Shown one piece after another: positions 15,075 through 30,485 of a DNA stretch of 44,379 bases. Within the stretch, counting starts at the first letter, position 1. Each line of letters opens with the position of its first letter. Origin of the DNA: Rhodothermales bacterium (GTDB lineage: Bacteria > Bacteroidota > Rhodothermia > Rhodothermales > JANQRZ01); NCBI GenBank assembly GCA_039944855.1, contig JBDUXZ010000041.1, positions 1 through 44,379 of the forward strand, in the 5' to 3' direction. A program made the translations under genes and the position numbers. Under the pieces are notes generated by a model. The model was not told where the DNA came from, did not search any database, and saw only the letters and a program-made list of their open reading frames with translations.

Positions 15075-15977
15075 ATGAGCAATCGGCTGCGGCACGTTTC
15101 TCCCCGACCCACCGCTCGCCCTCCAGCTGCGCGGAAACCCTACGCCCTCCTCCCCATGGACATCGCCGGACCGGAAGACGAACGACCCGGCGACGAGGTA
15201 GAAGGCATCCGCTACTTCGACTTCAGCGCACCACGCCCGCCGAGTGCGAACGACGCCGGACCCGACCCGTTCGCACAGGAGGGCCTCCCCGATTCCCACG
15301 AGAGCGCTACCCCGGATGCATCCCCTCGCGACGCAGAAGGAGGCCCGACGCGAGACATGGAACAGGAGGCGGTACCGACCGACCCGTTCGAGTTCGCCCT
15401 CACCGGCCCTCCCCCTGAGCATCCCACGCCGCGACGGAGGCGGGACAGGCTAGGGCTCGATCCGCTCGGCCGTGAGCCCATTGAGCCCGCCGCCGAACCG
15501 AGAGCCGAACGGGCTGCCGGATCGGCGAACGAGCCCCCGCCTCTCGTCCGCTTCTTCGAGCTCGCATCGCTGTTCGAGCCGAGCGATGCTGAGGCCGCCT
15601 CCCGCGAGCGCTTCGCCGCCGCCTTCGACGCGGCACGTGCCGAGCCCGAGGAGGGCTTCCTCGCGATCGCGCTCCGCATGCCCCCGCACGTCCCCGCCTC
15701 CGTACACTTCCCGATCGTCGCCGATGGGATCCGCGCCGCGCTCCACCCCGGCGACGCCCTCCTCTCCGACGACGACCGGCTCCGCCTCGTGGCTGTGCTA
15801 CGTGGGCGTCAAGCCACGGACGCGCACGCCCTCTTCGCCCGTCTCAAGGACCACCTCCGGGCGTGGGTCGACGAGGCGGACGACGTGCTGCGCGCCATCT
15901 CCGCCCTCGCCGCTCCGGACGGGCGCCCCTTCGAAGACGCCTCCGCTTTCCTTGCGAGCGCCTTCGACGCCGGCTGA
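15075..15977 (+). CDS. protein with disordered N-terminus and degenerate GGDEF-like domain
   Basis: 300 residues from ATG 15075; a later ATG at 15156 (MDIAGPEDERPGDEV) is also plausible. Residues 1 to about 155 are polar and rich in Pro, Glu and Arg and look disordered. From about 160 onward a folded region appears: PLVRFFELASLFEPSDAEAA, then FLAIALRM, IVADGIRAALHPGDALLSDDDRLRLVAVLRG, DAHALFARLKDHLRAW. The order and spacing match a diguanylate cyclase fold, but the GGDEF signature is replaced by SDDDR, so the domain should be catalytically dead; a c-di-GMP-sensing or purely structural role is possible. No membrane segment. A 39-residue membrane protein follows by 85 bases. Confidence 0.65.
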   Translation: MSNRLRHVSPRPTARPPAARKPYALLPMDIAGPEDERPGDEVEGIRYFDFSAPRPPSANDAGPDPFAQEGLPDSHESATPDASPRDAEGGPTRDMEQEAVPTDPFEFALTGPPPEHPTPRRRRDRLGLDPLGREPIEPAAEPRAERAAGSANEPPPLVRFFELASLFEPSDAEAASRERFAAAFDAARAEPEEGFLAIALRMPPHVPASVHFPIVADGIRAALHPGDALLSDDDRLRLVAVLRGRQATDAHALFARLKDHLRAWVDEADDVLRAISALAAPDGRPFEDASAFLASAFDAG

Positions 15978-16062
15978 CCTTTTGCAAGAGAGCTTCACGT
16001 TTGAGGAATACGCAACGCTGCCGATACTCGTTGAAGGTATTCTCCCCAAACGTCTTACGCTC

Positions 16063-16182
16063 ATGGCTCCCTACGTCTCCTTCGCGCTCGGCACCGCACT
16101 CCTCGTTGGCGTGAGCTTGCTCGTGCGCCGTCGCCCGGCCCCCCGATTCTCCGTCGAAAACGACGACATCGCCTGGCTGTAG
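16063..16182 (+). CDS. 39-residue single-pass membrane protein
   Basis: From ATG 16063 the frame gives MAPYVSFALGTALLVGVSLL, then a basic stop-transfer VRRRPAPR and a polar tail SVENDDIAWL. One transmembrane helix with a positive inside boundary is clear. A hairpin that overlaps its stop codon and is followed by TTT (16181-16203) supports transcription ending here. The frame is short and unconserved as far as I can judge, so coding status is moderately sure. It may be co-expressed with the upstream GGDEF-like gene. Confidence 0.5.
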   Translation: MAPYVSFALGTALLVGVSLLVRRRPAPRFSVENDDIAWL

Positions 16183-16203
16183 CGCTTCACCGGAAGCGCT
16201 TTT
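16181..16203 (+). terminator. hairpin terminator overlapping the ends of convergent genes
   Basis: AGCGCTTC (16181-16188) pairs with GAAGCGCT (16193-16200) around an ACCG loop and is followed by TTT on the plus strand. The left arm overlaps the stop of the 39-residue gene, and the right arm lies within the last codons of bshB1 on the other strand. Confidence 0.6.
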
Positions 16204-16954
16204 CACCGCCGAGCGTGCGCATCAAGTCCTGCACACCCACCGGGCCGTGCCGGTAGAGCAGCGGCTCCCCGAAGGTGGCGCCGGTGCGGTAGCCGTAGAC
16301 CCGCGCCCGCGCCTCGACCCACCGGAAGAAGTCGGGGTTGGAAATAAACGTCTCGGGCTCGTCGTCCCCGGTGACATAATCCGGGTTGAAAAACTGGCTT
16401 TTGAACGCCTGCAGCGCCGCGGTCCGCTGCTCCCACACGTCCGTCACGTCCACGACGAACGTCGGCTCGAACTCCACGGTCTGCATGTAGTGGAGGACGT
16501 GGCTCGGCCGCCACGGCTCCTGCGGGCTCCCGTCGACCTCGAACGTGGCGAGCTTGCTCAGCCCGCTGTAAAAGAGCGCATCGGTGGAGAGGCGCGCGGC
16601 GGCTTCGTGGTCCGGGTGCCGTTCTTCGAGGGCGTTGACGATGACGATGTGCGGGCGGTAGCGGCGGACGAGACGGACGAGCGCGTGCTGGTTCTCCTTC
16701 GTGTTCTGGATGTCGCCATCGGGGAGGCCGAGGTTGTCGCGGGCCGCGAGGCCGAGGATCTCGGCGGCGGCGGCGGCCTCCTCCATCCGCCCCTCCGGCG
16801 TGCCCCGGCTGCCGAGCTCGCCGCGCGTGAAGTCGACGACGCCGGTCGCGTAGCCGTCGCGGGCGAGGACGCACATCGTGCCGCCCGCGCAGAGCTCCAC
16901 GTCGTCGGGGTGGGCAGCGAGGGCCAGGACGTCGAGGGTAGGAAAATCGCTCAT
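16187..16954 (-). CDS. bshB1: N-acetylglucosaminyl-malate deacetylase, bacillithiol biosynthesis
   Basis: 255 residues from ATG 16954 (MSDFPTLDVLALAAHPDDVE). BshB1 removes the acetyl group from GlcNAc-malate to give GlcN-malate, the second step of bacillithiol synthesis. It is a zinc enzyme of the LmbE/PIG-L family: metal ligands are expected from AHPDD (His15, Asp18) and from ERHPDHEAA further on. The stretch DFTRGELGSRGTPEGRMEEA is characteristic of BshB1. A longer in-frame start at 17083 would overlap the antiporter gene and is rejected. The antiporter ends 34 bases upstream on the same strand. bshC, the last step, lies at 30482 in this window; bshA was not seen. Confidence 0.92.
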   Translation of the reverse strand: MSDFPTLDVLALAAHPDDVELCAGGTMCVLARDGYATGVVDFTRGELGSRGTPEGRMEEAAAAAEILGLAARDNLGLPDGDIQNTKENQHALVRLVRRYRPHIVIVNALEERHPDHEAAARLSTDALFYSGLSKLATFEVDGSPQEPWRPSHVLHYMQTVEFEPTFVVDVTDVWEQRTAALQAFKSQFFNPDYVTGDDEPETFISNPDFFRWVEARARVYGYRTGATFGEPLLYRHGPVGVQDLMRTLGGEKRFR

Positions 16955-16988
16955 CGGAGATGGGGATTCGGAGAGGCCGGCGAGCGGG

Positions 16989-18362
16989 TCACACGCGGCG
17001 CTCGCTCCGGGGTTCGCTCCGGGGTTCGGGGTCGTCCTCCATCTCGTGGGCCTCTTCCTCTTCACGGTCGGAGCGTCCGGCATACCAGTTCATGATCGGC
17101 GTCACGGACGTCCCGTGGAGCACGACGCTCGCCGTGATCGTGAGGAGGACGACGCCGAGGATGCTGCCGGAGAAGAGGTCGTAGACGCCGTGGTTCTCGG
17201 CGTACATCAGGTAGTAGATCGAGCCGATCCCCCGGATGCCGAACCACGCGATGAGTTCGCGCTGGAGCCCCGTCGTCGGCGAGCCGAGGAGGCCGAGCCA
17301 CACCGAGACCGGACGGATCACGAACAGGAGCGCGGCGACGAAAAGAAAGGCGTTCCACGAGAAGTCGGCATACGTGAGGAGCGTCCCGACGAGGATGACG
17401 AGGGCGACGCCGCCGATCCGTTCGAGCTGCTCGGCGAACCCGAGCACGGCCGACGCCATGTACGCCGGGACGACATCGCCGTCGGCGCCGACGCCCTCCT
17501 TCTCCCCCTCGCGCGCGAGGGCCTCGATCTCCTCGGCCGGCTTGTCGCCCGTGTGGCGGCGCTCCTCGAACCGGAGGGCGAGCCCGGCCGCGAACACGGC
17601 GAGGAAGGCGTAGGTGTGGGCGAAGATGGCCACGCCATAGCTCAGCGCGACGAGCCCGAGCGCGAGGAAGTCGTCGAGCCCCACGGCCTCCTCCTGCTCC
17701 CGCCGGAGGTGGACGACGAGCCGCCCCACGGCCATCCCGAGGAGCGCGCCGATCCCGATCCCGCCCGCGATCCTCCACCCCAGGTCCACCACGACCCACT
17801 TCCAGCCCCAGTCGCCGAGCTCGTGGAGGCCAAGTAGACCGAGGCCGAGCATCACGAAGGGGAACGCCGCGCCGTCGTTGAACCCGGCCTCGCCGGTGAG
17901 GCTGAAGCGGAGGCGGTCCCGGTCGTCGGGGTCCTCGATCTGCACGTCGGAGGCAAGGACGGGGTCGGTCGGCGCGAGGACGGCGCCGAGGAGGACGGCG
18001 GCCCCGATGGGGAGCCCGAGCAAGAAGACACCCGCGAGGGCGACGAGCCCGACGGTGAGCGTCATCGAGATCGTCGCGAGGCGGAGCGGGAGCTTCCAGC
18101 GGCCGTCGTGGAGCGGCGTGCGGAGCTTGAGCCCGGCCGCGAAGAGCGAGAGGATGACGGCGACCTCGGCCAGCCGCTCCAGCACCGACGCCCGCTCGAT
18201 GGGGTCGATCGCGAGGAGCCCGATGCCGAGCGGCCCGATCGCCACGCCAACGAGGAGGTAGAGCTGCGCCGTCGAGAGTGGGAGCCGCTTCAGGAGGGTG
18301 TTCGCGAGCGCCATCAGCGTCAGCACGAGCCCGGCGACGAGGAACCAGTAGTTAAAATCCAT
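16989..18362 (-). CDS. CPA-family cation/proton antiporter
   Basis: 457 residues with about 12 hydrophobic helices, from MDFNYWFLVAGLVLTLMALAN at the start. The sequence TDPVLASD and the NDGAAFPFVMLGLGL block match CPA1 sodium-or-potassium/proton exchangers, with the acidic residues of the transport core (Asp in TDP and ND). A hydrophilic insertion rich in Glu and Arg (about 285-310, ERRHTGDKPAEEIEAL) and a charged tail (SDREEEEAHEMEDD) are likely cytoplasmic. Role inferred: pH and salt homeostasis in the inner membrane. It precedes bshB1 by 34 bases, so the two may share a transcript. Confidence 0.88.
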   Translation of the reverse strand: MDFNYWFLVAGLVLTLMALANTLLKRLPLSTAQLYLLVGVAIGPLGIGLLAIDPIERASVLERLAEVAVILSLFAAGLKLRTPLHDGRWKLPLRLATISMTLTVGLVALAGVFLLGLPIGAAVLLGAVLAPTDPVLASDVQIEDPDDRDRLRFSLTGEAGFNDGAAFPFVMLGLGLLGLHELGDWGWKWVVVDLGWRIAGGIGIGALLGMAVGRLVVHLRREQEEAVGLDDFLALGLVALSYGVAIFAHTYAFLAVFAAGLALRFEERRHTGDKPAEEIEALAREGEKEGVGADGDVVPAYMASAVLGFAEQLERIGGVALVILVGTLLTYADFSWNAFLFVAALLFVIRPVSVWLGLLGSPTTGLQRELIAWFGIRGIGSIYYLMYAENHGVYDLFSGSILGVVLLTITASVVLHGTSVTPIMNWYAGRSDREEEEAHEMEDDPEPRSEPRSERRV

Positions 18363-18462
18363 GCGGCCGAGCGAGGAGAGATGGGAGCGACAGCGCGTGC
18401 TCTCTCACGACGCACCGCCCGTTCGGTTCGGTCCACGAACCTATCTATCCCACATAGTATGC

Positions 18463-18548
18463 TGTCATCCTGAGCGTAGCGAAGGATCTCTCCCACCCAG
18501 GCAACCAAGTTGGCATTCAGCAGATTCTTCGCTTCGCTCAGAATGACA
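18463..18548. repeat. interspersed inverted repeat, copy A
   Basis: The left arm 18463-18489 begins TGTCATCCTGAGC and contains GCGAAGGATCT; the right arm 18522-18548 ends CTCAGAATGACA. The 27-base arms are complementary with only three mismatches and enclose 32 bases. The second copy at 35585-35687 shares GTCATCCTGAGC and GAAG(A/G)A/ATC cores. It lies between the LOG-family gene and the antiporter gene and could act as a terminator-like structure in the transcript. Confidence 0.75.
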
Positions 18549-18571
18549 TATCTGGCGTCTTCGGATGTCCT

Positions 18572-19159
18572 CTAAATCTCGTCGGGGTCGAGCCAGCGGG
18601 GCACGTCGGGCGGTGTCCACGCCGCGAGCGCGTCGAGGAGCGCGGCGGGCGTCTCGGCCACGAGCAGCAAGTCGCGGTGGGCAGGGCGCACGAAGCCCTC
18701 GGCGACCGCGTGGTCGACGAACGCGAGGAGGCCGTCGAAGTAGCCCGCCACGTTGAGCAGGCCGACGGGTTGCCGGTGGATGCCGAGCTGCACCCACGTC
18801 CACACCTCCATCAACTCCTCCAGCGTCCCGATCCCGCCGGGGAGCGCGACGAAGCCGTCGGCGAGCTCCGCCATCAGCGCCTTCCGCTCGTGCATCGTGT
18901 CGACTTTGTGCAGCGCGGTGAGACCGGTGTGGTCCACCTCGCGGGCCGCGAGCGCGTGCGGAATCACGCCGATCACCTCCCCGCCCGCGTCGAGCGCAGC
19001 GTCGGCGACGAGGCCCATCATCCCCACGCTCCCGCCGCCGAACACGACGCGGATCCCGCGCTCGGCGAGGAGCGTGCCGGTGGCCCGCGCCGCCTCCGCA
19101 TAGTCCGAGCGGACGCCGGCGCGGGAGCCGCAGTAGATACAGAGGGAACGGAGCGGCAT
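18572..19159 (-). CDS. LOG-family nucleotide phosphoribohydrolase
   Basis: 195 residues from ATG 19159 ([20 protein letters not shown]). LOG/TIGR00730 proteins cleave the ribose-phosphate from nucleoside monophosphates (cytokinin ribotides in plants, AMP-like substrates in bacteria). Hallmarks: [36 protein letters not shown] and the signature [15 protein letters not shown], which forms the nucleotide phosphate site. Length fits the family. It sits 14 bases downstream of nothing on its own strand but follows the NmrA-like gene, whose stop lies 14 bases before this ATG, so it is probably in the leuS transcript. Confidence 0.9.
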
Positions 19160-19173
19160 GGGACGAGAGCGGT

Positions 19174-20019
19174 TTAGGCCCACGCGGCGCGGTAGTCGGC
19201 CGCGAAGGTGGCGAAGGAGGTAGCGGGCCGGCCGAGGAGGGCGGCGAGGTCGTCAGTGACGCGGGCGGCGAGGCCGAGGCGGGCGACGGTGTAGATCCCC
19301 GTCATCACGAGCACGAACGGCAGCGGTTCGCCCTCGCCGAGCTTCCGCCACGCGAACGCGAGAGCGCCGGGCCGGGCGTAGTCGATCCGCCGGCCGAGCA
19401 CGTCCGAGAGCACATGTGCGACTTCGAAATGGTCGATGGCCGTCGGCCCCGTGAGGTCGAGCGCGCGCTGTGCCGGGCCGCCCGCGCCGAGCACGAGCGC
19501 CGCCGCCTCGCCCACGTCGCGGGCGTCGACGTAGCTCACGCGGCCGTCTCCGGCGGGGACGAAGACGGTGTCGCGCTCACGGATCTCGGCCGCGTTCTGC
19601 TCGGCGAGGTTCTGCATGAAGTTGCTCGCCCGGAGGAGGGTGTACCCGAGCGGCGAGGCTTCGAGCCGCTTCTCCGTAGCCCGGTGCGGGAGGAGCGGGT
19701 TCCGCTCGGCCCCGAGCACGGAGAGGAACGCGACGTGCCCCACCCCCGCCGCCTCGGCCGCGTCGACGACGGGGTTGACGAAGCGCGCGGCGTCGGAGAT
19801 CGCGGGCGGTCGCAGGAGGAACAGCCCGTCGGCCCCGGCGAGCGCGGGCGCGAACGTCTCCGGCCGCGTGAAGTCGAAGGCGACGGCTCTCGCGCCGTCC
19901 GGCAGGTCGGCCTCCACGTTGCGGACGGCCGCGACGACCTCGTGCCCGTCCGCCACCGCACGCTCGGCGACGGCGCGGCCGACAGTGCCGGTTGCTCCCG
20001 TTACGACGATGCGCGCCAC
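19174..20019 (-). CDS. NmrA-like NAD(P)-binding protein
   Basis: 281 residues from a GTG start at 20019 (reads as [17 protein letters not shown]). The Rossmann motif GATGTVG lies at 8-14. Features of the NmrA/QOR2-like atypical SDR group are [61 protein letters not shown], and [12 protein letters not shown]. Members act as redox-sensing regulators or quinone/NADPH reductases. The start is decided by fit: no in-frame ATG precedes it inside the gap, longer reading frames would run antisense-like through leuS, and GGGGTGG sits a few bases before the GTG. leuS ends only 8 bases upstream on the same strand, so translation is likely coupled. Confidence 0.85.
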
Positions 20020-20027
20020 GCCACCCC

Positions 20028-22598
20028 TCAGCTCACGACGAAGTTGACGAGGCGGCCGGGCACGTAGATCTCCTTCCGCACCGTACCCTCGGCGAGGTAG
20101 CGCGCGACGTTCTCCTCGGCGCGCGCCGCGTCGAGCACGGCGTCCTTCGAGGCGTCGGCGGCGACGCGGACGGTCCCGCGCAGCTTGCCCATCACCTGCA
20201 CGGCGATCTCGACCTCGTCCTCTTTGAGGTACTGCTCGTCGAGCTGCGGCCACGGGGCATACGTCAGGCTGTCGCCGTGGCCGAGCCGGTCCCACAGCTC
20301 CTCGCCGATGTGCGGCGCGAACGGGGCGAGGAGGAGCACGAAGTCGTCGAGGAGCGCTTTCGGCGTCGCATCCCACTTCGTGGCTTCGTTGACAAACTCG
20401 ATCATCGCCGCAATCGCCGTGTTGAAGCGGAGGCCGTCGATGTCGTCGGTGACGCGCTGGATCGTCCGGTGGAGCAGGCGGAGCTGCTCTCGCTGGGGCT
20501 CGGCGTCGGAGATCTCCTGCTCGGTGACGAGCCGCCACGCCCGCGCGAGGAAGCGGTGGACGCCCTTCACGTCGTCGGTCCGCCACGGCTTCGTCTGCTC
20601 GAGGGGCCCCATGTACATCTCGTAGAGCCGCAGCGAGTCGGCCCCGTACTCCGCGATGATGTCGTCGGGGTTGACGACGTTGCCGCGGCTCTTCGACATC
20701 TTGTGCGCCCGCGACTCGACCTCGACGTTCGGGTCGGCCTTCAGCACAAACCGGTCGCCGCGCTTCTCGACTTCGTCCTCCTCGACCGTGCTCGCCACGC
20801 CGTCGCGGACGACGGTGTACTCGACTTCGCCTAGGATCATGCCCTGGTTGACGAGCCGCTCGAACGGCTCCTTCGTCGAGACGACGCCCGCGTCGTAGAG
20901 GACTTTGTGCCAGAACCGGGCGTAGAGCAGGTGCAGCACGGCGTGCTCGGCTCCGCCGACATAGAGGTCGACCGGCATCCAGTACTGCTCTTTCGCCGGG
21001 TCGACGAGGGCGCGGTCGTTGTCGGGGTCGAGGTAGCGGAGGTAGTACCAGCACGAGCCGGCCCACTGCGGCATCGTGTTCGTCTCGCGCCGCGCCGACT
21101 CGCCCTCGAACGTGGTCTCGACCCACTCGGGGATCGTCGCGAGCGGGCTCTCACCGGTGCCACTCGGCTCGTAGCGCTCGACCTCCGGTAGCATCACGGG
21201 GAGGTCGGATTCGGGGAGCGGCTGCGGCTCATCGTCGACGAAGACGATGGGGAACGGCTCGCCCCAGTAGCGCTGCCGGCTGAAGAGCCAGTCGCGGAGC
21301 TTGTAGTTGATCTTCCGCCGACCGACGCCCTCGCTCTCCAACCACTCGGTGATTTTGGCCTTCGCCTCCGCCACGCCGAGCCCGTCGAGCTTTACGCCGC
21401 GCTGGGCGATGTTCGCAATCGCGCGGTCCGACGAGTCGGAGTTGATGAGGGTGCCGTCGCCGGTGTACGCCGCCTCGTCCACGTTGCCACCCGAGACGAC
21501 CTCGCGGATCGGTAGGCCGTATTGCGTGGCGAAGGCGTAGTCGCGCTCGTCGTGGGCGGGCACGGCCATGATCGCGCCGGTGCCGTAGCTCGCAAGGACG
21601 TAGTCGGCGACCCAGATCGGGATGTGGAAGCCGGTGACGGGGTTGACGGCGTGTGCCCCCGTGAAGACGCCGGACTTCTCTTTCTGCAGCTCGGTCCGTT
21701 CGAGCTCGGATTTCCGCGCGGCGGCGTCGCGGTAGGCGTCCACGGCACCGCGCTGCTCGGCCGTCGTGATCTCCTCGACGAGCGGGTGCTCGGGCGCGAG
21801 GACCATGTATGTCGCGCCAAAAAGGGTGTCGGGCCGCGTCGTGAACACGCGGATGTCGGTCTCGGCGTGGCCGAAGACGGGGAAGTCCACCTCGGCCCCT
21901 TCGCTCCGCCCGATCCAGTTCCGCTGCATCTCCTTCAGCGAGTCCGGCCAGCCGAGATCGTCGAGCCCGTCGAGGAGGCGTTCGGCGTAGGCCGTGATTT
22001 TGAGCATCCACTGCCGCATCGGCCGGCGGACGACGGGGTGCCCGCCGCGCTCGCTCCGCCCGTCGATCACCTCTTCATTCGCGAGGACGGTGCCGAGCGC
22101 CGGGCACCAGTTCACCGCCACCTCGGCCTGATACGCGAGACCCTTTTTGTAGAGTTGCAGGAAGATCCACTGCGTCCAGCGGTAGTACTTCGGGTCCGTC
22201 GTGTCGACCTCGCGGCTCCAGTCGTACGAGAAGCCGAGCATCTTGAGCTGCTCGCGGAAGCGCGTGATGTTGCGCTGCGTCGTCTCGCGCGGGTGCGTCC
22301 CTGTCTCGACGGCGTACTGCTCGGCCGGCAGCCCGAAGGCGTCCCACCCGATCGGGTGGAGCACGTTGAAGCCCTGCATCCGCCGCGCCCGCGCGATGAT
22401 GTCGGTGGCGGTGTAGCCCTCGGGGTGGCCGACGTGGAGCCCGGCGCCGGACGGGTAGGGAAACATGTCGAGGACGTAGTACTTCGGGCGGGCAGCGTCG
22501 AAGCCGGCGTCGCCGGGGCCGGGCGTCTTGAACGTCTCGTGCGCGTCCCAGTGGCGCTGCCACTTGGGTTCGATCTCGTCGAAGGGATAGCCTGCCAT
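20028..22598 (-). CDS. leuS: leucyl-tRNA synthetase
   Basis: 856 residues, full length for bacterial LeuRS. It charges tRNA(Leu) with leucine in the cytoplasm. HIGH-like HVGH at 55-58 in [20 protein letters not shown], the editing (CP1) domain with [19 protein letters not shown], and KMSKS in [16 protein letters not shown] near residue 633 are all visible. The C-terminal tRNA-binding region ends [20 protein letters not shown] and [11 protein letters not shown]. Start at ATG 22598 matches the usual N-terminus ([16 protein letters not shown]). Downstream on the same strand are the NmrA-like and LOG genes. Confidence 0.98.
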
Positions 22599-22740
22599 GT
22601 CGGGTCGGGAATAGGGCGGTCGAGAGGGGGCGGAAAGCTACGGTGCGGCGCGCTCGATGTTCGTGCGGGCACGGTGAAGGAACGGCCCACCCCCCGCTTC
22701 TCGATCCATCGCTGCGGGACTGCGTCCCTGCGCTCAGAGA

Positions 22741-22774
22741 TAGAAAAGCTGTCCCCCTCATTGAGAGGGACAGC
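22741..22774 (-). terminator. intrinsic terminator of the secreted-protein gene
   Basis: GCTGTCCC (22748-22755) pairs with GGGACAGC (22767-22774); after one mismatch CTC/GAG extends the stem to a 3-base ATT loop. In minus-strand reading the hairpin is followed directly by TTTTCTA, a classic U-tract. It lies about 90 bases after the stop of the gene at 22863 and isolates leuS from it. Confidence 0.85.
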
Positions 22775-22862
22775 CGCGTGAAGCCGAAAGTGGAGGCTCA
22801 CAGAGCCGGGGCGAGCGCGAGCGCGGCGGGGGTCAAACCCGATGCCGCCGCGCGAGGAGGAA

Positions 22863-23738
22863 TCACCCGCCGCTGCCGCGCATCTCCTCGCCCTGCCGCC
22901 GCATCTCGTCGAGGCTGATCTCGCCGGCGGCGTCGAGCGCCGTGAGCGTCTCGACGAAGCGGCTCCCGGCCTCGGTGATGGCGCCGACGAGGGCGGCATT
23001 CATCGCGGCCGTGCCGAGGTCGCTGGCGTACTGCGCGTCCGGCGTGTCGAGCTGCGCGATGTAGGCGTCGAACTCGGCGTCGGGGATGTCGCGGAAGGCG
23101 TAGAGCGTGCTGCCGCGGATCATCCCGCCGATCATCCCTTCGAGCTGCGGCCGCATCTGCGCGCGGAGCGAGTCGGCCGACAGCCGCTCCTTCCCTTCGG
23201 GCGTGAGCGCCCGCATCGACTCCGAGGAAGCGACGATGAGGTTGAGGTAGAGGTCGACGCCCTTGTCGGCGGCGTCGGTGGCGGCGAGGTAGCGGTCCAT
23301 CTGCTCCTCGCGCTCGGGCGTGACCGGGGCCGCAAAGCTCCCCGTCATCGCGTACATCTGCACGGCGACCTGCGCGTTCGCGTCGTTCGACGCCGAGTCC
23401 TCCACCGCATGCATCCGCTCCACGAGCGGCTGGTCCATCCACGCGAGCGATTCGCGGATGCGGTCGGCATCGCCCTCGGCGGTGACGTAGCTCACGAGGC
23501 GCGCGGTGAGGGCATCGGCGTTCATCTCCTCGGCGTAGATCGCACGGAACGGCGCCCGTGCGGGCTCAGGCATCTGCGCCGCCTGCCCCTGAATCTGCTG
23601 GAGGATCTGCGCCCCCACCGACTCGATCTCGGAGGCCAGGCCCATCTCTTCGAGGTACGTCTCGGCGAGGTCGCCGGGGACTTGGGCGGCCACCGGAACG
23701 GTGAACAGGAGGACGAGGACGGGCAGCAGCAGGCGCAT
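22863..23738 (-). CDS. secreted helical protein of unknown function
   Basis: 291 residues from ATG 23738 (MRLLLPVLVLLFTVPVAAQ), a signal peptide with cleavage after VAA. The mature protein is almost wholly helical and acidic: VPGDLAETYLEEMGLASEIESVGAQILQQIQG, then DADRIRESLAWMDQPLVERM and MRPQLEGMIGGMIRG. The repeated helix pattern brings to mind DUF2059-type periplasmic proteins, but I cannot make that assignment. A longer in-frame start at 23771 (MAFPLPSPPR) is less fitting because the signal begins at the second Met. An intrinsic terminator follows, so it is likely a single-gene unit. Confidence 0.75.
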   Translation of the reverse strand: MRLLLPVLVLLFTVPVAAQVPGDLAETYLEEMGLASEIESVGAQILQQIQGQAAQMPEPARAPFRAIYAEEMNADALTARLVSYVTAEGDADRIRESLAWMDQPLVERMHAVEDSASNDANAQVAVQMYAMTGSFAAPVTPEREEQMDRYLAATDAADKGVDLYLNLIVASSESMRALTPEGKERLSADSLRAQMRPQLEGMIGGMIRGSTLYAFRDIPDAEFDAYIAQLDTPDAQYASDLGTAAMNAALVGAITEAGSRFVETLTALDAAGEISLDEMRRQGEEMRGSGG

Positions 23739-23808
23739 AGATCGTGGTGGTGAAGGGAGAGGAAACGCCAAGATACGTCGCCCACGGCCTTCCGCCGACG
23801 TGGCGGCG

Positions 23809-24417
23809 CTACAGCACGAGCGCGACGAGCACCGCCACGACGGCCGCCGCGATCACGACGAAGTCGAGCGCGAACGCGGCCACGAGCGCGAGCACGAACG
23901 GCAGGCTCGCCAGCCGCGCCGCCCGCGCGAGCGCGACCGTCCGCGCGAATGTCCCGCGCGAGTCGCCCATCACCCCGCGCAGCCGCCACAGCACGCCGAC
24001 GAACCCGAACAGCCGCCGCGACCGCTTCGACTCGCCGGGACGAACGACGTCGGCCGCGCCCGTCGCCGCCTCCGCCGCCGAGTCGCGGACCTGCCCCGGC
24101 AGCGCCCGGAGCCGGTTCGGGAGGTCGAGCACCTCGTTGAGGGTGAGCACGGCGAGGAGCGTCCCCGCAGCCGGGACGAGCAAGATGCCGAGCGCCACGA
24201 CTGCCGCCGCCGTCCGCACCGTGAGCGGCCACAGCACGCCGCCGAAGAGCACGAGCCACAGCACGACGGCCGCCACGGCCGAGACGATCCCGACGCCTCG
24301 AACCTTCCCGATCACCCCGCGCACGAGCGGAAGCACGCCGCGCAGCCGATCCGTGATGCCGGCCGGGGATTCCGGTAGGACGGGCGGAGACGGAGACGAA
24401 GTGGGCACGGGTTTCAT
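23809..24417 (-). CDS. small integral membrane protein, unknown
   Basis: 202 residues from ATG 24417 (MKPVPTSSPSPPVLP). A cytoplasmic Pro-rich start leads to two close hydrophobic segments (VSAVAAVVLWLVLFGGVLW and VVALGILLVPAAGTLLAVL), a hydrophilic middle with LPNRLRALPGQVRDSAAEAATG, and a long C-terminal hydrophobic stretch (FVLALVAAFALDFVVIAAAVVAVLVALVL) that could form a hairpin of two helices. Four transmembrane segments are expected. A GTG one codon earlier is equally in frame. No family recognised; the divergent neighbour is the CoA-binding protein. Confidence 0.65.
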   Translation of the reverse strand: MKPVPTSSPSPPVLPESPAGITDRLRGVLPLVRGVIGKVRGVGIVSAVAAVVLWLVLFGGVLWPLTVRTAAAVVALGILLVPAAGTLLAVLTLNEVLDLPNRLRALPGQVRDSAAEAATGAADVVRPGESKRSRRLFGFVGVLWRLRGVMGDSRGTFARTVALARAARLASLPFVLALVAAFALDFVVIAAAVVAVLVALVL

Positions 24418-24531
24418 CACAGCAAGGTCAAAGCGCCGAACGGCAAGGGTCGCGCATCACGCATCACGCATCGGGAATCTAATCTCCGCCGCGACGTACA
24501 ATCGGCCCATCTCCCACACGCCGCCCCTCTC

Positions 24532-24942
24532 ATGGATTTCCAGACCCTCTTCGCCGCCGCCCGCACGATCGCCGTCGTCGGCTGCTCGCCGCGCGCAACG
24601 CGGACGAGCCACCGCATCGCCCGCTACCTGCAGGACGCCGGCTACACCGTCGTCCCGATCAACCCTCACCACGACGAGCTCCTCGGCGTCCCGTGCTACC
24701 CTGATTTGCTCTCCATCCCGGAGGACACCCACATCGACATCGTCAACGTGTACCGGCAGCCGCGCTTCACCGAAGGCGTCGTGCAAGACGCCGTGGACCG
24801 GAACGAACGCACGCAGGAGAACCCGGTGATCTGGACTCAGCTCGGCGTCTCGTCGCAGGAGGCAAAAGGGCTCGCCGCCGCCCACGACCTGCCCTACGTC
24901 ACGAACCGCTGCATCATGGTCGAGCACGCCCGCTTCTTCTGA
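24532..24942 (+). CDS. CoA-binding domain protein (YccU-like)
   Basis: 136 residues. The single-domain fold resembles the CoA-binding domain of succinyl-CoA synthetase alpha subunit: TIAVVGCSPRATRTSHRIARYLQDAGYTVVPINP with a Gly-Cys-Ser-Pro phosphate loop, then HIDIVNVYRQP, VIWTQLGVSSQEA, and the C-terminal NRCIMVEHARFF, which is characteristic of the YccU family. Its biochemical role is not established; a CoA- or nucleotide-binding switch is inferred. It is alone on the plus strand, divergent from the membrane protein gene and convergent with the cyclase gene, whose end lies 23 bases after this stop. Confidence 0.9.
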   Translation: MDFQTLFAAARTIAVVGCSPRATRTSHRIARYLQDAGYTVVPINPHHDELLGVPCYPDLLSIPEDTHIDIVNVYRQPRFTEGVVQDAVDRNERTQENPVIWTQLGVSSQEAKGLAAAHDLPYVTNRCIMVEHARFF

Positions 24943-24965
24943 ACTGGCCTCGGCGCTCCGCTGCG

Positions 24966-26204
24966 TCACGCCAGCCGGTACAGCACGACCGGCTCCTGCC
25001 GCCCCCGCACCTCGACCGCGCCGAGCGCTTCGGCCTCCAGCGCCTCATCCCCGGCCGCGCGCCACACCGCCTCGGACGCCAGCACCGCCGAGTCGAAGTC
25101 TTTGTTCAGCCCTTCGATCCGCGCTGCGAGGTTCACCACGTCGCCGGTGACTTTGTACTCCCGGTGAACCTTCGACCCCACGAGCCCGGCGACCACCTCG
25201 CCCGCGTGCAGCCCGATCCCAACCCGCGTCGGTGCGACGGCTCCGCTCTCGACGGCGGACCGCAGCCGCTCGACGATCTCGAGCGCCGCGTGGACGGCGT
25301 TGCGGCAGTCGTTCCCGCGCGAGACGGGCGCGCCGAAGATCGCCATGAACCCGTCGCCGAGGAGCTGGTGCACGATCCCGTGGTGCCGGGTCACCGCCTC
25401 GATCATGAACCAGAGCAGGCCGTTGAGGTAGTCCACCACGGCCTCCGGCTCGGCCTGCTCGGCGAACGCCGTGAAGTCGCGTACGTCGAGAAACATCACG
25501 CATACGGACTGCCGCTGCGGGACCACGTCGGCCTCGCCCCCCATCAGCGCGTCCACGACGGCTGGGTCCGTGTGCTGCCCGAACACCCGCCGCACCCGCT
25601 CCCCCTCCTCCCGCACGCGGGCGTTCTCGATCACCTGCGCCGACTGCGCCGCGAGGATCGCCAGCAGCCGCTCGTCCTCGGCGCTGAAGCCCTCGTCGCC
25701 GCGCTTGTTGAACACCGTCAGCACGCCGATGAGCCCAGCGCGAACGAGGAGCGGGACGCTGAGGACGGTGCGGACGGCCGGGGCCCAGTCCTGCGGGCTG
25801 AAGCGGTCGTCCGTCGCGGGGTCGTCCACGCGGATGGGCTTCTTGTACCAGTGCATCCAGCCGAGGAGAACCGCGCTCGGCCGGAACGCCTCGCCCTCGC
25901 TGGAGCGGACCGACGTGCGCACGACCGTCCGGTTGTCGTCCGACCGCGCGGCATCGACGAGCGTAACCGTCCCCTGCCCGGCCCCAACGGCTCCCATCCC
26001 CTCACGCACGATGCGGCGCAGGATCGTGCCCAGATCCCGCGCCGCCCCCAGCGCCGCCGCGACCTCGTTTAGCAGCGCCAACTCCTGGACAGAGCGGCGG
26101 AGACTTTTATTCTCTCGTCGGATTGCTTCAGGATCGACCTCCACGATTGCTTCCTCACTGTTTCCGATATTCGTGTCATCGCTCCAACTCATCACGCTCG
26201 TCAT
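24966..26204 (-). CDS. GAF domain class III nucleotidyl cyclase
   Basis: 412 residues from ATG 26204; ATG 26192 (MSWSDDTN) is an alternative. A coiled start (RRENKSLRRSVQELALLNEVAAAL) leads to a GAF domain at about 45-195, and the cyclase catalytic domain at about 230-370. Both metal-binding Asp are present: Asp240 in VMFLDVRDF and Asp284 in HQLLGDGFMA. The transition-state Asn358 and Arg362 lie in VVNLAARIE. The adenine-recognising Lys, usual in xDKFIGD, is Gln here (HQLLGD), so base specificity is uncertain. The domain should make cAMP or cGMP; a GAF ligand would control it. Its start lies inside the last codons of the preceding AT-richer gene, implying translational coupling. Confidence 0.9.
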   Translation of the reverse strand: MTSVMSWSDDTNIGNSEEAIVEVDPEAIRRENKSLRRSVQELALLNEVAAALGAARDLGTILRRIVREGMGAVGAGQGTVTLVDAARSDDNRTVVRTSVRSSEGEAFRPSAVLLGWMHWYKKPIRVDDPATDDRFSPQDWAPAVRTVLSVPLLVRAGLIGVLTVFNKRGDEGFSAEDERLLAILAAQSAQVIENARVREEGERVRRVFGQHTDPAVVDALMGGEADVVPQRQSVCVMFLDVRDFTAFAEQAEPEAVVDYLNGLLWFMIEAVTRHHGIVHQLLGDGFMAIFGAPVSRGNDCRNAVHAALEIVERLRSAVESGAVAPTRVGIGLHAGEVVAGLVGSKVHREYKVTGDVVNLAARIEGLNKDFDSAVLASEAVWRAAGDEALEAEALGAVEVRGRQEPVVLYRLA

Positions 26205-26853
26205 TGAATGCGCGATCGATATCGAAGAGTGATGTCGACCCCACGGACAGAATTTTTGCCGTTGAACTACCCTGAATGACGAGGGTTATTTCGTACAAAC
26301 CAGGCGGCAGTTCGACATCTGTAGGCAAGCCCACAATATCGTCCGAGACGAAATCACTAGTAGACAGAGGCCTTATCACCAACTCCGCACTTCCCTTTTC
26401 ATAGCTATCAGTATCGAAGGTGATAGAAGCGTATTCTTGGCGAGCCTCAATGTTACTCATCGCTATTATCTCTTCGAATCGTATGCGCGGCCTTGCATCT
26501 TGCCCATTATCACCACAATTCGAACAGAATACCTCAGCCTCCTCTCCATCGCAATCGGCTAATATTTGATACTCAAACTCCTCCTCGTCGTAACCTGTTG
26601 TCACGTTGAAATCATAAGACTTATTCCGACCTTTTATTACCTCAAAACGCGAATCCATTCCTTTGAAATACTTCTCTTCCCCATTCAGCATCACGACTGT
26701 AGCGGTCTCTGCGTCACATTCATCTGCAATCCTCCACGTTATTCCATCTATCTTATTTGTTCCACGCTGTCTTCGATCATAAGCTGTGGTACCGACCAAG
26801 TTCGCTGTCAGATTGGGGCATGAGCCTGTGATGGTGACTATCCGTTTGGGCAC
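26176..26853 (-). CDS. AT-richer protein of unknown function in kinase-cyclase cluster
   Basis: 225 residues from GTG 26853, decided by a near-perfect ribosome binding site 7 bases before it (26861-26868). The composition drops sharply here; one sampled 60-base stretch is 42 percent GC in a genome near 65-70. The protein is acidic with a mixed beta pattern: IVTITGSCPNLTANLVG, ITWRIADECDAETATVVMLNGEEKYFKG, YDFNVTTGYDEEEFEYQILADCDG, then a Cys pair CSNCGD, and a second beta region PPGLYEITLVIQGSSTAKI. The order suggests one or two beta-sandwich domains, perhaps cupredoxin-like, but no copper-ligand set is visible and I do not name a family. Its end overlaps the cyclase start by 29 bases. Recent transfer is possible. 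Confidence 0.65.
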   Translation of the reverse strand: MPKRIVTITGSCPNLTANLVGTTAYDRRQRGTNKIDGITWRIADECDAETATVVMLNGEEKYFKGMDSRFEVIKGRNKSYDFNVTTGYDEEEFEYQILADCDGEEAEVFCSNCGDNGQDARPRIRFEEIIAMSNIEARQEYASITFDTDSYEKGSAELVIRPLSTSDFVSDDIVGLPTDVELPPGLYEITLVIQGSSTAKILSVGSTSLFDIDRAFNDERDELER

Positions 26854-26860
26854 GACTTCA

Positions 26861-26868
26861 ACCTCCTT
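26861..26868 (-). promoter_or_regulatory. near-consensus Shine-Dalgarno before the GTG at 26853
   Basis: Minus-strand AAGGAGGT lies 7 bases upstream of GTG 26853. It matches the anti-Shine-Dalgarno perfectly at eight bases. Other starts in the window show weak or no such site, as is normal for this branch, so this one stands out and supports the GTG start. Confidence 0.75.
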
Positions 26869-26893
26869 CTAGGTGTGGGGATGTATCATGAGT

Positions 26894-29659
26894 CTAAGAT
26901 TCAGAGCGTATGGCCGCACGGTACCTCGGATCGGTTATCAGGTCACGAAGCGCAGGTTCCTGCTCAAGCTCCGTATCGGGATACCCTCGGGATAACGCCT
27001 CGGCTACCCACCGAAGCGCTTGGTCACGCCGACCAAGTCGCTCGTAGAGGACAGCGACGCGCTGCGCGAGGTACATGTCGCTCGACACGTTGACATTCAC
27101 TTCGTCCAGCAAGGAACTAGCCCGCGCATTCTCTCCTATTTCAAGGTGATACATGGCGAGATCCGAGAGCACTTCGGGGTTCGACGGAGCGACGCGTCTC
27201 ACTTCCTCTGCTGTTTCAATAGCGTGGCGGTACGCTCTCTCTGCTTCAGTGGAATGCCCTCTCATCAAGCTGTACACATCGCCGAGGTTACCCCACACGG
27301 TGTACTCGCTGTCATTGTGTTGCAAGGCCCGCTCGTAGGCCTGAGCGGCCATTGCATAGTCTTCTTCGTAATAACTGGCATCTCCCAATCGAGCGTAAGC
27401 CCTGTAACTCGGCCTGACATCCAAGCTTCGCTGTGCCCACAAGCGGGCATTCTCGAAATCTCCCCTATAGAGGTAGCTTGTAGCGAGGCCCTCGTAACCT
27501 CGAACGTCGTCCGGTGCAAGGTCAATCACTTGCTCGAACTGGTGAATTGCCTCCTCCAAGCGACCAGATTCTATGTAGAGGTACCCGAGGTCATTGCGAG
27601 GTTGCCACCTGCTTGGTTGCAAGTCAATGGCTGTCTGGTAGAACCTCTCTGCTTCCTCTGTGCGCTGAAGCTTTCTGTACGAAGATGCAAGACCGTGGTA
27701 CATCCTGGCATCGTCTGGTTCCAACTCCACTCCAATTCTAAACTGGTTAACCGCAGCCGAATAGTCGCCTGTAATGTTGTAGAGCAACCCCAGCGTGATT
27801 CGCACAGCCGCAAGGCGGTTGGAAAGCCTGAGGGCGTGGCGGCTGTGTTGCTCAGCCAGACGAATCACCTCCGGATCCTGGGTGGACTGGTACTTCCGCA
27901 CATAGGCCTCTCCCAGACCTGCGTGGGCGAGGGCGTAGAGCGAGTCGTCTTCGAGTGCCCATAGAAAAGCCTGAATAGCAGTCCTTATGTTCTCTGGTCG
28001 GTCGAACCGCTCCAATGCTGCTGTTCCTTTCAGGTACCACTCATACGCTTCGCTATCCGCCGTACCGCCAGCGGTGAGCATGCTCTGCCGCTCCTCAGAG
28101 AGCGGGACCCCGAGCATATCAGCGAGCGTGGCGAGCGCGCGTTGATGAAGAACGGGTAAGCGGTTCGCCGACTCCGAAAGACGCTCGGTGTGGAGTTGGC
28201 GGAGGGTGCGTGCATCGATCATGTTGAGCGTAAGGTGAGCCTGCTCGCCCTCTCGCTGGAAGTCCCCGCTGACGACGACGCCCACGCCGAACCGTTCGCG
28301 AGCCTCGGCGGCGGTCTTGATCTCCCGCATTTCGCTGGCCGGAACGACGGTGATGGGCCGCTCGGCGTGAGAGCCGAGTTGGGTCAACAGGCTCGTCAGT
28401 GTGAGCGTCAGGCCCTCACCCACCGAGGCTTCGGCTGCGGGGCTCATGAGCGGGAGCACGGCGAGGTGCTGCACGTCCGGCCCGCTGCCACCTAGCCAGG
28501 CTGTCGCGGCGGTGCGGAGGGGCGAGAGGGCGAGGACGAGCAGGAGCGCGAGGCCCCCGAGCCCGAACGCGAGGCGGCGGGTGCGGCGCGACACGCGGCG
28601 CGACGGGTGCGCGGCGGGTGCGCCCAGCCGCAGCCGTTCGAGGTCCACTTCGACCTCCTCAGCCGAGGGGTAGCGGAGGTCGGGGTCTTTCTCGAGGCAT
28701 CGCCGGACGATCTCGGCGAGCGGGTCCGGCACGTCGTCGCGGTCGAGCGGGGCGGGCGCTTCGTGGAGGACGGCGTAGAGCAGTGCGGCCTCGTAGTCGC
28801 CGCGGAAGGGGCGCCGGCCGGTGAGCATCTCGTAGAGCACGACGCCGAGCGCCCACACGTCGGAGCGGGCCTCCGGGGCGCCGCGCAGGTGCTCGGGGCT
28901 CATGTACGCGGCGGTCCCGAGCGTGTCGCCGGTGCCGGTGAGGTCGGAGTCGGCGACGCGGGCGATGCCGAAGTCGAGGATCTTGACCTCCTCGTCTTCG
29001 GTGACGAGGACGTTCGAGGGCTTCACGTCGCGGTGGACGATGCCGTGGCGGTGGGCAGCGGCGAGGCCACGCGCCATGCGGACGGCGATGCGGACGGCGT
29101 CGTCCACGGCGAGGGGGCCGCGCTCGATCCGGTTCTCGAGTGTCTCGCCGTCGTAGCAGGCGAGGGCGAGGTAGAGCCGGCCGTCGTCGGTCTCGCCGAT
29201 CTCGTAGACCGTGCAGATGTTGGGGTGGTCGAGCGCGCTGGCCGCCTGCGCTTCCCGCTCTAGCCGCGCCCGCGCCCGCTTGTCGGCGCTGAGTTGGGGC
29301 GAGAGAAACTTCAGCGCGACCGGCCGCTTGAGCCGGGTGTCCTGCGCGCGGTAGACGATCCCCATCGCCCCGCGCCCTAGCTCTTCGAGCAGGCAGTACG
29401 GCCCGACGATCTCGCCGAGGATCAGGCTATCGCCCGAGCCGAGCCCGCCCGAGCCTACTCGGGACGGCGGCGGCGATCCGGTGAGCGGCTCGCCGCGTTC
29501 GTGGCGATCGAGGAGGGCCTGGAGCTGCTCCCGCAGCCGTGGGTCTTCCCGGCCGACCCGTTCGAGCCGGGCCGTGCGCCGTTCGGGGTCGAGCCCGACG
29601 ACTTCGGCGAAGAGGCGCTGGACGTGCCGCCAGCGTTTATGGGACGCGGAGACTTCCAT
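26894..29659 (-). CDS. Ser/Thr protein kinase with membrane anchor and TPR sensor domain
   Basis: 921 residues. The kinase domain (about 85-350) has all key motifs: Gly loop LGRGAMGIVYRA, Lys117 in VALKF, HRDVKPSNV (His209-Asp211), and DFG at 229-231, followed by TAAYMSPEHLRG. One transmembrane helix follows at about 373-391 (FGLGGLALLLVLALSPL). The outer part has a LPLMSPAAEASVGEGLTLTLTSLL region of the FlgO-like/TolB-N type seen in such kinases, then about eight TPRs with the typical ...YNITGDYSAAVNQFRIGVELEPDDA pattern. The N-terminal 80 residues (LFAEVVGLDPERRTARLERV) are typical of this kinase class. GC falls in the TPR half (27.0-28.1 kb), suggesting a later-acquired or faster-evolving part. 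The unknown gene and cyclase follow downstream. Confidence 0.93.
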   Translation of the reverse strand: MEVSASHKRWRHVQRLFAEVVGLDPERRTARLERVGREDPRLREQLQALLDRHERGEPLTGSPPPSRVGSGGLGSGDSLILGEIVGPYCLLEELGRGAMGIVYRAQDTRLKRPVALKFLSPQLSADKRARARLEREAQAASALDHPNICTVYEIGETDDGRLYLALACYDGETLENRIERGPLAVDDAVRIAVRMARGLAAAHRHGIVHRDVKPSNVLVTEDEEVKILDFGIARVADSDLTGTGDTLGTAAYMSPEHLRGAPEARSDVWALGVVLYEMLTGRRPFRGDYEAALLYAVLHEAPAPLDRDDVPDPLAEIVRRCLEKDPDLRYPSAEEVEVDLERLRLGAPAAHPSRRVSRRTRRLAFGLGGLALLLVLALSPLRTAATAWLGGSGPDVQHLAVLPLMSPAAEASVGEGLTLTLTSLLTQLGSHAERPITVVPASEMREIKTAAEARERFGVGVVVSGDFQREGEQAHLTLNMIDARTLRQLHTERLSESANRLPVLHQRALATLADMLGVPLSEERQSMLTAGGTADSEAYEWYLKGTAALERFDRPENIRTAIQAFLWALEDDSLYALAHAGLGEAYVRKYQSTQDPEVIRLAEQHSRHALRLSNRLAAVRITLGLLYNITGDYSAAVNQFRIGVELEPDDARMYHGLASSYRKLQRTEEAERFYQTAIDLQPSRWQPRNDLGYLYIESGRLEEAIHQFEQVIDLAPDDVRGYEGLATSYLYRGDFENARLWAQRSLDVRPSYRAYARLGDASYYEEDYAMAAQAYERALQHNDSEYTVWGNLGDVYSLMRGHSTEAERAYRHAIETAEEVRRVAPSNPEVLSDLAMYHLEIGENARASSLLDEVNVNVSSDMYLAQRVAVLYERLGRRDQALRWVAEALSRGYPDTELEQEPALRDLITDPRYRAAIRSES

Positions 29660-29727
29660 CGGTGCCGGGAGCGCGCACGAGGGGAACCCGATGCGCAGTC
29701 ACAATCCTGTGAGAAGAGCCGCCACAA

Positions 29728-29750
29728 GTAACGGATAACACACCCGTTAC
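29728..29750. promoter_or_regulatory. inverted repeat in the kinase promoter region
   Basis: GTAACGG (29728-29734) and CCGTTAC (29744-29750) form perfect 7-base inverted arms with a 9-base AT-rich spacer, 69 bases upstream of the kinase ATG. The dyad suits a dimeric repressor or activator. On the minus strand a TTG and a TACTTGTG further on could form a promoter overlapping the dyad. Confidence 0.45.
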
Positions 29751-29819
29751 GCAAGGGCACCGGCAACCTCACCCGCGGAACACCTTGCTGGCTCGTCGGC
29801 TACTCCCCTCTGCCGTACG

Positions 29820-30485
29820 CTACCCCTCGTCGCTCGTCAGCCGCTCAAAGCGCTCGATCTCCTGCCGCAGCCGCTCGCGCATCGGATCGAGCCGCGGATC
29901 GATGAAAGCCTCGGACGTATCGAGGACCGTGCGGAAGAACCACCGCTGCTCGTCGGGGCCGGCCGAGAGCTTTCGGTTCGTGGGCCCATCGGCGAAGATG
30001 TTCACCCCGGACTGGATGCCCTGGTTCATCGTCCACGCGTTGTGGAGCTTGTCGGCGAGCGAGATCGCAGCCACCTCGGGCGTGGCCGCACGTAGGGTTT
30101 CGACGTAGGCATCCTTCCGCACACGCCACGGGAGATGCTTGCCGTCTGGCCCGCGCTGCGGCTCGGTGACGCCGAGCACGCGCTCGGCCACGCCCTCGCC
30201 CACGAGGTCGGCGAGCCGCTCGAACGTGAGGGTGTGCCGGAACTGGTTGCCGTCTTCGAGCGCGTCGTGGAGAAAGGCGGCGGCGACGGTCTCGTCGTCC
30301 CATCCCGCCCGCTGGACCGTGAGGGCGACGGCAGTCAGGTGGGCCATCACGGGGATGCGCAGCGCGACCTCCGGCGGCGGGTCGAACGGGTGCGCGCGCC
30401 AGCGGCTCTTGCGGTACGTCCGGTCGTGCCACTCGGCGGCGAGTTCGATGGCGCGCTCGACGAGGGGCGAGAAGAGCGGCGTCAT
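29820..30485 (-). CDS. SpoT-like HD hydrolase
   Basis: 221 residues. HD-family metal site residues are seen in order: AHLTAVAL (first His), FLHDALEDG (HDxxED, the RelA/SpoT hydrolase signature), and ISLADKLHNAWTM (the Asp-x-x-His-Asn motif). The helix pattern matches the hydrolase domain of SpoT and of small alarmone hydrolases (MESH1), but is longer, with a C-terminal extension (DPMRERLRQEIERFERL). Breaking down (p)ppGpp or a related phosphorylated nucleotide is inferred. Its ATG overlaps the bshC stop in ATGA, so the two are translationally coupled. It is the last gene of the run from hisD. Confidence 0.85.
   Translation of the reverse strand: MTPLFSPLVERAIELAAEWHDRTYRKSRWRAHPFDPPPEVALRIPVMAHLTAVALTVQRAGWDDETVAAAFLHDALEDGNQFRHTLTFERLADLVGEGVAERVLGVTEPQRGPDGKHLPWRVRKDAYVETLRAATPEVAAISLADKLHNAWTMNQGIQSGVNIFADGPTNRKLSAGPDEQRWFFRTVLDTSEAFIDPRLDPMRERLRQEIERFERLTSDEG

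What the first reader, a model, noticed from the sequence alone, without database searches (positions are those of the whole stretch)
24966..29659. Kinase-TPR, AT-rich unknown and GAF-cyclase as one signalling unit
Three same-strand genes run together: the unknown begins 40 bases after the kinase stop, and the cyclase starts inside its last codons. This combination of Ser/Thr kinase, unknown acidic beta protein and nucleotide cyclase is unfamiliar to me as a named system. GC drops in the unknown and in the TPR half of the kinase, which suggests partial replacement or acquisition.
Basis: partly seen in the sequence, partly recalled or inferred. Interest (0 to 1): 0.6.

Follow-up and report, generated by a model that had tools for sequence, protein, structure and literature searches.

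The report
Kinase, small beta-protein, cyclase cassette
Three neighbouring genes (a membrane protein kinase, a small fast-changing protein of unknown function and an enzyme that makes a cyclic-nucleotide signal) sit in this bacterium as one inserted block, and they belong to a widespread but unnamed signalling module in which the kinase almost always travels with a small partner protein.

Summary
In both genomes of the same family that were available, the two genes flanking the trio abut (gaps of about 10 and 22 bases), so the trio is present or absent as a 4.9-kb block. The same order, kinase > small orphan > GAF-cyclase, recurs at another site in a relative (G046). The core is kinase plus small protein. 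Profiles of the small proteins found 41 of 244 genomes of the class. In 28 of 29 newly read loci the small gene lies beside the TPR kinase or a contig-cut piece of it. The third partner is exchangeable: GAF-SpoIIE phosphatase in most lineages, GAF-cyclase in Rhodothermales. The small family has no match in Pfam, NCBIfam or PDB. The window's own orphan, P0001, fits by position, by a PRIRF motif and by a weak profile match (2 of 100 shuffles as good), so its homology is likely but unproven. Most likely this is a one-TM Hanks kinase with an extracytoplasmic TPR half, its small partner and a GAF-cyclase output. The direction of signalling, the ligand and the cyclase's substrate are inferred or unknown.

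The parts
26894..29659 (-). Hanks-type Ser/Thr kinase: kinase domain residues 81-350 (HRD and DFG present), one TM helix 363-381, then a region of about 180 residues without a Pfam match, then TPRs and a TPR end-of-group motif
26176..26853 (-). P0001, 225-aa acidic orphan, GTG start. Residues 1-130 are the probable kinase-partner beta domain (PRIRF motif at 122-126); residues 130-225 are an extra region. No signal peptide or TM found
24966..26204 (-). GAF domain plus class III nucleotide cyclase. Metal Asp, Asn and Arg positions are kept; the base-selecting pair is Gln/Lys instead of Lys/Asp(Thr) or Glu/Cys
24943..29819 (.). Inserted block (cassette) of about 4.9 kb, absent between the same two flanking genes in G001 and G002
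29660..29819 (-). Leader of about 160 bases upstream of the kinase, the presumed promoter region; no consensus promoter found
   Evidence: inference
24532..24942 (+). Left flank: CoA-binding-like protein, 136 aa, conserved next to the empty site (75-80% identity)
   Evidence: family named from memory
29820..30485 (-). Right flank: HD-type 221-aa protein, conserved next to the empty site (68-71% identity)
   Evidence: family named from memory

Best explanation
The three genes form one transferable signalling cassette. The kinase has a cytoplasmic catalytic domain, one membrane helix and a TPR half that, by the single helix and the basic residues before it, lies outside the cytoplasm. The small beta-protein is its dedicated partner; in most relatives it carries a signal peptide, which fits binding to the outer TPR half. 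Binding of the partner, or of what the partner recognises, switches the kinase, and the kinase (directly or through a substrate) switches the GAF-cyclase, which makes a cyclic nucleotide. Shown: gene order, block insertion, conserved kinase-partner pairing, intact kinase motifs. Inferred: co-transcription, physical binding, direction of signalling, P0001's membership of the partner family, and the cyclase product. P0001 lacks a signal peptide, so here the contact may be cytoplasmic.
For: Empty site: in G001 and G002 (same family, another genus) the order LeuRS, 302-aa protein, 203-aa protein, CoA-binding, HD, BshC-like is otherwise identical, and the CoA-binding and HD genes abut; G063 of another family also lacks the trio. 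Same trio, same order in G046, at a different genomic site. In the trees the window's kinase groups with the four others that carry the most diverged small genes (support 83/74), and the window's cyclase pairs with that of G046 (64/63, weak). Of 14 GAF-cyclase loci of this type, 7 have a kinase next door; binomial p about 6e-8 at an assumed 3% chance rate. Kinase-partner pairing: profile A5 across 114 genomes of the order gave 12 hits below 1e-6, 11 of them beside a kinase orthologue and one at a contig edge beside CHAT; profile A6 gave 28 of 29 further loci beside the kinase. The C-terminal motif P-x-[IVM]-[IVRM]-[IVMF] occurs in 8 of 439 ORFs, all 8 being these small genes (6 distinct).
Against: P0001 is not significantly matched by the family HMM and reaches only 2/100 against shuffles with hhalign. 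It has no signal peptide while the kinase TPR half is predicted outside. Its motif is internal, with about 95 further residues after it. Half of the GAF-cyclases have no kinase neighbour. Tree supports for the trio are weak. G023 has a stop inside its small gene, and G320 has small genes without an adjacent kinase. No expression or binding data exist.
Confidence: 0.62

Rival explanations
1. Kinase plus P0001 is the real unit and the GAF-cyclase is an independent gene that landed or stayed beside it by chance.
For: Closest kinase relatives G071:C265, G032 and G013a have kinase and small gene without a cyclase; half of the GAF-cyclases of this type stand alone.
Against: The whole trio is one block at a site empty in relatives; the same trio recurs in G046; kinase-cyclase adjacency recurs in 7 of 14 loci in several layouts (same strand, divergent, reversed order); elsewhere the homologous GAF module carries SpoIIE and sits in the same operon.
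Confidence: 0.18
2. P0001 is an unrelated AT-rich gene captured between kinase and cyclase, not a member of the kinase-partner family.
For: No significant sequence match to any family, relative, PDB entry, phage or plasmid; GC3 0.47 against about 0.9 around it; HMM and profile scores close to shuffled controls.
Against: It sits exactly where relatives carry the partner; low GC3 in that slot recurs (0.38 in G032, 0.61 in G013); the kinase's nearest clade all carries diverged small genes there; its residues 36-99 align in register with the family and are followed by PRIRF.
Confidence: 0.25
3. It is an anti-phage or self-killing system: the small variable protein recognises an invader, and the cyclase makes an alarm nucleotide, as in Pycsar.
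For: Related kinases and GAF proteins sit beside caspase and CHAT genes in the own genome (C3), G059, G032 and G043; the small gene is hypervariable; cyclase hits to PycC models; non-canonical Gln/Lys base-selecting pair.
Against: No PycTM/PycTIR-type effector in the block, whose flanks are ordinary conserved genes; PycC and PD-T4-6 hits are generic cyclase and kinase similarity; no defence island or mobile genes in the stretch examined; the usual partner elsewhere is SpoIIE, typical of stress signalling.
Confidence: 0.12

Closest known systems
GAF-SpoIIE / TPR-kinase / small beta-protein operons of the same class of Bacteroidota (unnamed; L227, L229, L231-L233, L239-L258)
   Same: Same TPR-kinase subfamily, same downstream position of the small partner, homologous GAF half in the third protein
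   Different: Output is a SpoIIE phosphatase instead of a cyclase, often with an extra ABM-domain gene; the small proteins carry signal peptides and a C-terminal SPPRIII
Caspase / CHAT / TPR-kinase / cupredoxin-like clusters (own contig C3, G059, G032, G043)
   Same: Same kinase subfamily with a small beta-protein next to it; GAF protein nearby
   Different: Caspase and CHAT proteins are present there and absent from the window block
TOMM system kinase/cyclase fusion (TIGR03903)
   Same: Joins a Hanks kinase and a class III cyclase
   Different: Single fused protein; our proteins score 148 and 27 bits against a cut-off of 706
Pycsar (PycC cyclase)
   Same: Class III cyclase fold
   Different: No Pyc effector; kinase and partner instead
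VMAP / GAP1-N2 conflict systems (Kaur et al. 2020, PMC7159879)
   Same: Kinases, cNMP cyclases, caspases and TPRs recur; kinase + PP2C gene pairs are described
   Different: Neither a vWA-MoxR trio nor a GAP1 GTPase was recognised among the genes examined here; a small beta-protein partner of this kind is not described in the passages read

Membership tests
Active Hanks-type Ser/Thr kinase with TM and TPR | Pkinase domain with HRD and DFG, TM, TPR repeats | tested here: met
Class III nucleotide cyclase | Two metal Asp and the transition-state Asn/Arg | tested here: met
   (D, D, N, R kept)
Adenylate or guanylate cyclase by motif | Base-selecting pair Lys/Asp(Thr) or Glu/Cys | tested here: not met
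   Gln/Lys; the Lys/Asp role is shown for Ma1120 in PMC4215837; Glu/Cys and Thr variants from general knowledge
Kinase-associated small beta-protein family (A5/A6) | Gene directly downstream of the TPR kinase | tested here: met
Kinase-associated small beta-protein family (A5/A6) | Significant profile match | tested here: inconclusive
   2 of 100 shuffles reach the hhalign score
Kinase-associated small beta-protein family (A5/A6) | C-terminal SPPRIII-type motif | tested here: inconclusive
   PRIRF at 122-126, internal rather than C-terminal
Kinase-associated small beta-protein family (A5/A6) | Same beta-sandwich fold | tested here: inconclusive
   models too poor (pLDDT 39 and 54)
Pycsar | Adjacent Pyc effector (TM or TIR with cNMP sensor) | tested here: not met
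   block ends at conserved CoA-binding and HD genes
TOMM kinase/cyclase fusion | Score above the TIGR03903 cut-off in one protein | tested here: not met
Operon (single transcript) | Co-transcription | not testable with these tools
   only spacing, overlap and lack of a terminator

The most novel reading that the evidence does not exclude
The module is an unrecognised, widespread extracytoplasmic kinase system with a hypervariable dedicated partner protein acting as its recognition part. Kinase tail and partner are exchanged as a sensor cassette while outputs (phosphatase, cyclase, caspase/CHAT) are swapped behind it, and the cyclase branch uses a non-canonical nucleotide.
Probability: 0.25. 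Interest if true: 0.8.

Novelty: new variant of a known kind. Interest (0 to 1): 0.6.

Why it matters
Bacterial Hanks kinases with TPR halves are numerous (the loose first look gave 69 candidate places for this kinase in the own genome) and mostly lack a known signal. A dedicated small partner, conserved in position but hardly in sequence, is a direct candidate for what those kinases sense. The swap of SpoIIE phosphatase for cyclase behind one shared GAF module links phosphorylation to cyclic-nucleotide signalling in a genetically testable operon. The small-protein family matched no Pfam, NCBIfam or PDB entry.

Tried and rejected
Direct homology searches for P0001 (genome contigs, plasmids, phages, PHROGs, PDB, 99 relatives) found nothing. 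Single-sequence AlphaFold of P0001 and of the G046 partner gave pLDDT 39 and 54, and the Foldseek search of the latter had no hit at E<=0.001, so no fold is claimed. An HMM of only the PPxI-type small genes did not find P0001. A mobile-element reading was considered: there is no tRNA in the window, no clear terminal or target-site repeat at the block ends, and none of the three genes is a transposase or integrase. A first cyclase tree contained one wrongly oriented row and was rebuilt. Literature searches found no description of this trio; only open-access papers are held.

Full report
OBSERVATION. The three genes are as described. Kinase-TPR, orphan and GAF-cyclase lie on the minus strand at 29659-26894, 26853-26176 and 26204-24966. 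The orphan has a good ribosome site and a GTG start 40 bases after the kinase stop, and the cyclase ORF overlaps it by 29 bases. The GC drop is a gradient: GC3 0.93 (kinase domain), 0.79, 0.62 (TPR), 0.47 (orphan), then 0.90 (cyclase); neighbouring genes are near 0.9. No terminator-like site lies between the genes on the coding strand.

THE PROTEINS. The kinase keeps HRD and DFG, has one TM helix at 363-381 preceded by basic residues, and ends in TPRs. Nineteen of the 20 kinases examined (this one included) have a TM after the kinase domain (L222 has none by this measure). The cyclase keeps the metal and transition-state residues, but its base-selecting pair is Gln/Lys. Across related cyclases the pairs are Gln/Ser (37), Lys/Thr (29) and Gln/Lys (13), so the product cannot be named from sequence. 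P0001 is acidic, has no Pfam, NCBIfam, PHROG or PDB match, and has no relative findable by sequence in 99 related genomes, plasmids or phages.

ONE BLOCK. In G001 and G002, genomes of the same family but another genus, the neighbourhood is otherwise identical gene for gene (LeuRS, 302-aa protein, 203-aa protein, CoA-binding, HD, BshC-like, 195-aa protein). The CoA-binding and HD genes there abut; in the window 4.9 kb holding exactly these three genes lies between them. A genome of another family (G063) also lacks the trio. Gain of the block in this lineage is the simplest reading; loss in the others is not excluded. No terminal repeats, target duplication or tRNA mark the ends.

RECURRENCE OF THE TRIO. 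The GAF-cyclase family (full length) was found only in Rhodothermales. Of 14 loci, 7 have a kinase beside the cyclase: kinase > small orphan > cyclase in the window and in G046 (L048), divergent kinase/cyclase in G013, G053 and G067, and cyclase > kinase in own contig C21 and in G071. In G059 and G071 (contig C22) the cyclase lies beside a caspase gene. At an assumed 3% chance of a kinase neighbour this is about 6e-8, though related loci are not independent. The window's kinase falls with G071:C265, G013a, G032a and G046, the four with the most diverged partners (83/74), and the window's cyclase pairs with that of G046 (64/63): consistent, not proven.

THE CORE PAIR. Reading downstream of kinase orthologues showed a small same-strand gene at -1 to +54 bases in most cases (a few called starts overlap the kinase further). 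The cupredoxin-like class gave profile A5. Searched against 114 genomes of the order, it returned 12 hits below 1e-6; 11 lie beside a kinase orthologue (one of them convergent) and one at a contig edge beside CHAT. Wider members gave profile A6, whose C-end is [FY]AxGxSPPRIII. A6 matches 41 of 244 genomes of the class. Of 30 newly read loci, 29 had the small gene called, and in 28 it lies directly beside a TPR kinase on the same strand; five of these kinases are seen only as contig-cut pieces, and L244 is the exception. Many also carry GAF-SpoIIE next to the kinase, often with an ABM-domain gene. G320 has small genes without an adjacent kinase. The seeds came from kinase neighbourhoods, so only the newly found loci count as a test. 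The family has no Pfam, NCBIfam or PDB match; plastocyanins appear below threshold.

DOES P0001 BELONG? Position says yes. The motif PRIRF at 122-126 fits, but it is internal. Profile evidence is marginal: hhalign 2/100 shuffles, HMMER about 5/1000. The other diverged partners in the same kinase clade score variably: the G071 partner clearly (0/100), G046 and G013 marginally, G032 not. I put membership at about 0.7.

MECHANISM. Most partners have signal peptides and the kinase's TPR half is predicted outside, so a partner bound to the TPR half is the natural picture; P0001 has no signal peptide, which is a loose end. The GAF module is shared between SpoIIE and cyclase outputs, so the kinase/partner pair probably feeds a GAF-regulated output. 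This is inference.

GC GRADIENT. The decline from kinase domain to small gene also occurs in G032 (0.94 to 0.38), G013 (0.87 to 0.61) and, more weakly, in G071 and G084:C348. That fits repeated replacement or fast drift of kinase tail plus partner, but no donor was found.

VERDICT. A real, transferable signalling cassette built on a conserved but unnamed kinase-partner pair. The components are of known kinds; the pair, the partner family and the exchange of outputs are, as far as I could find, undescribed.

Noticed in passing
own genome contig C3, about 13,400-27,000 (L051, L066): Cluster of GAF-SpoIIE, caspase (Peptidase_C14), two CHAT-type proteins, a TPR kinase of the same subfamily and its cupredoxin-like partner; similar clusters in G059, G032 and G043.
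   Followed up: partly
window 24966-26204 and homologues: Cyclase base-selecting pair Gln/Lys; many distant relatives have Gln/Ser; neither is a standard adenylate or guanylate cyclase pair.
   Followed up: partly
own genome contig C21, 5,254-8,439 (L039): Paralogous GAF-cyclase directly followed by another Ser/Thr kinase.
   Followed up: partly
L227 1773-2531 and equivalents: A 252-aa ABM-domain (antibiotic biosynthesis monooxygenase-like) gene lies between GAF-SpoIIE and the kinase in many loci; role unknown.
   Followed up: partly
G023:C381 26966-27256 (L197): Partner gene with an in-frame TGA downstream of an intact kinase: a possible decayed copy or sequencing error.
   Followed up: no
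L088 6546-8123: In G084 a TPR protein with weak cyclase similarity to the window's cyclase by BLAST (no Pfam cyclase hit in the visible part; ORF cut by the contig end) lies directly upstream of the kinase.
   Followed up: partly
LeuRS in G032, G046, G067, G039: LeuRS matches break into three pieces at the same two places (near residues 370-380 and 598), suggesting lineage-specific insertions.
   Followed up: no
L071 2546-8360: In G013 a kinase plus diverged partner sits directly upstream of LeuRS, a few genes from where the window block sits; possibly a favoured insertion region.
   Followed up: partly
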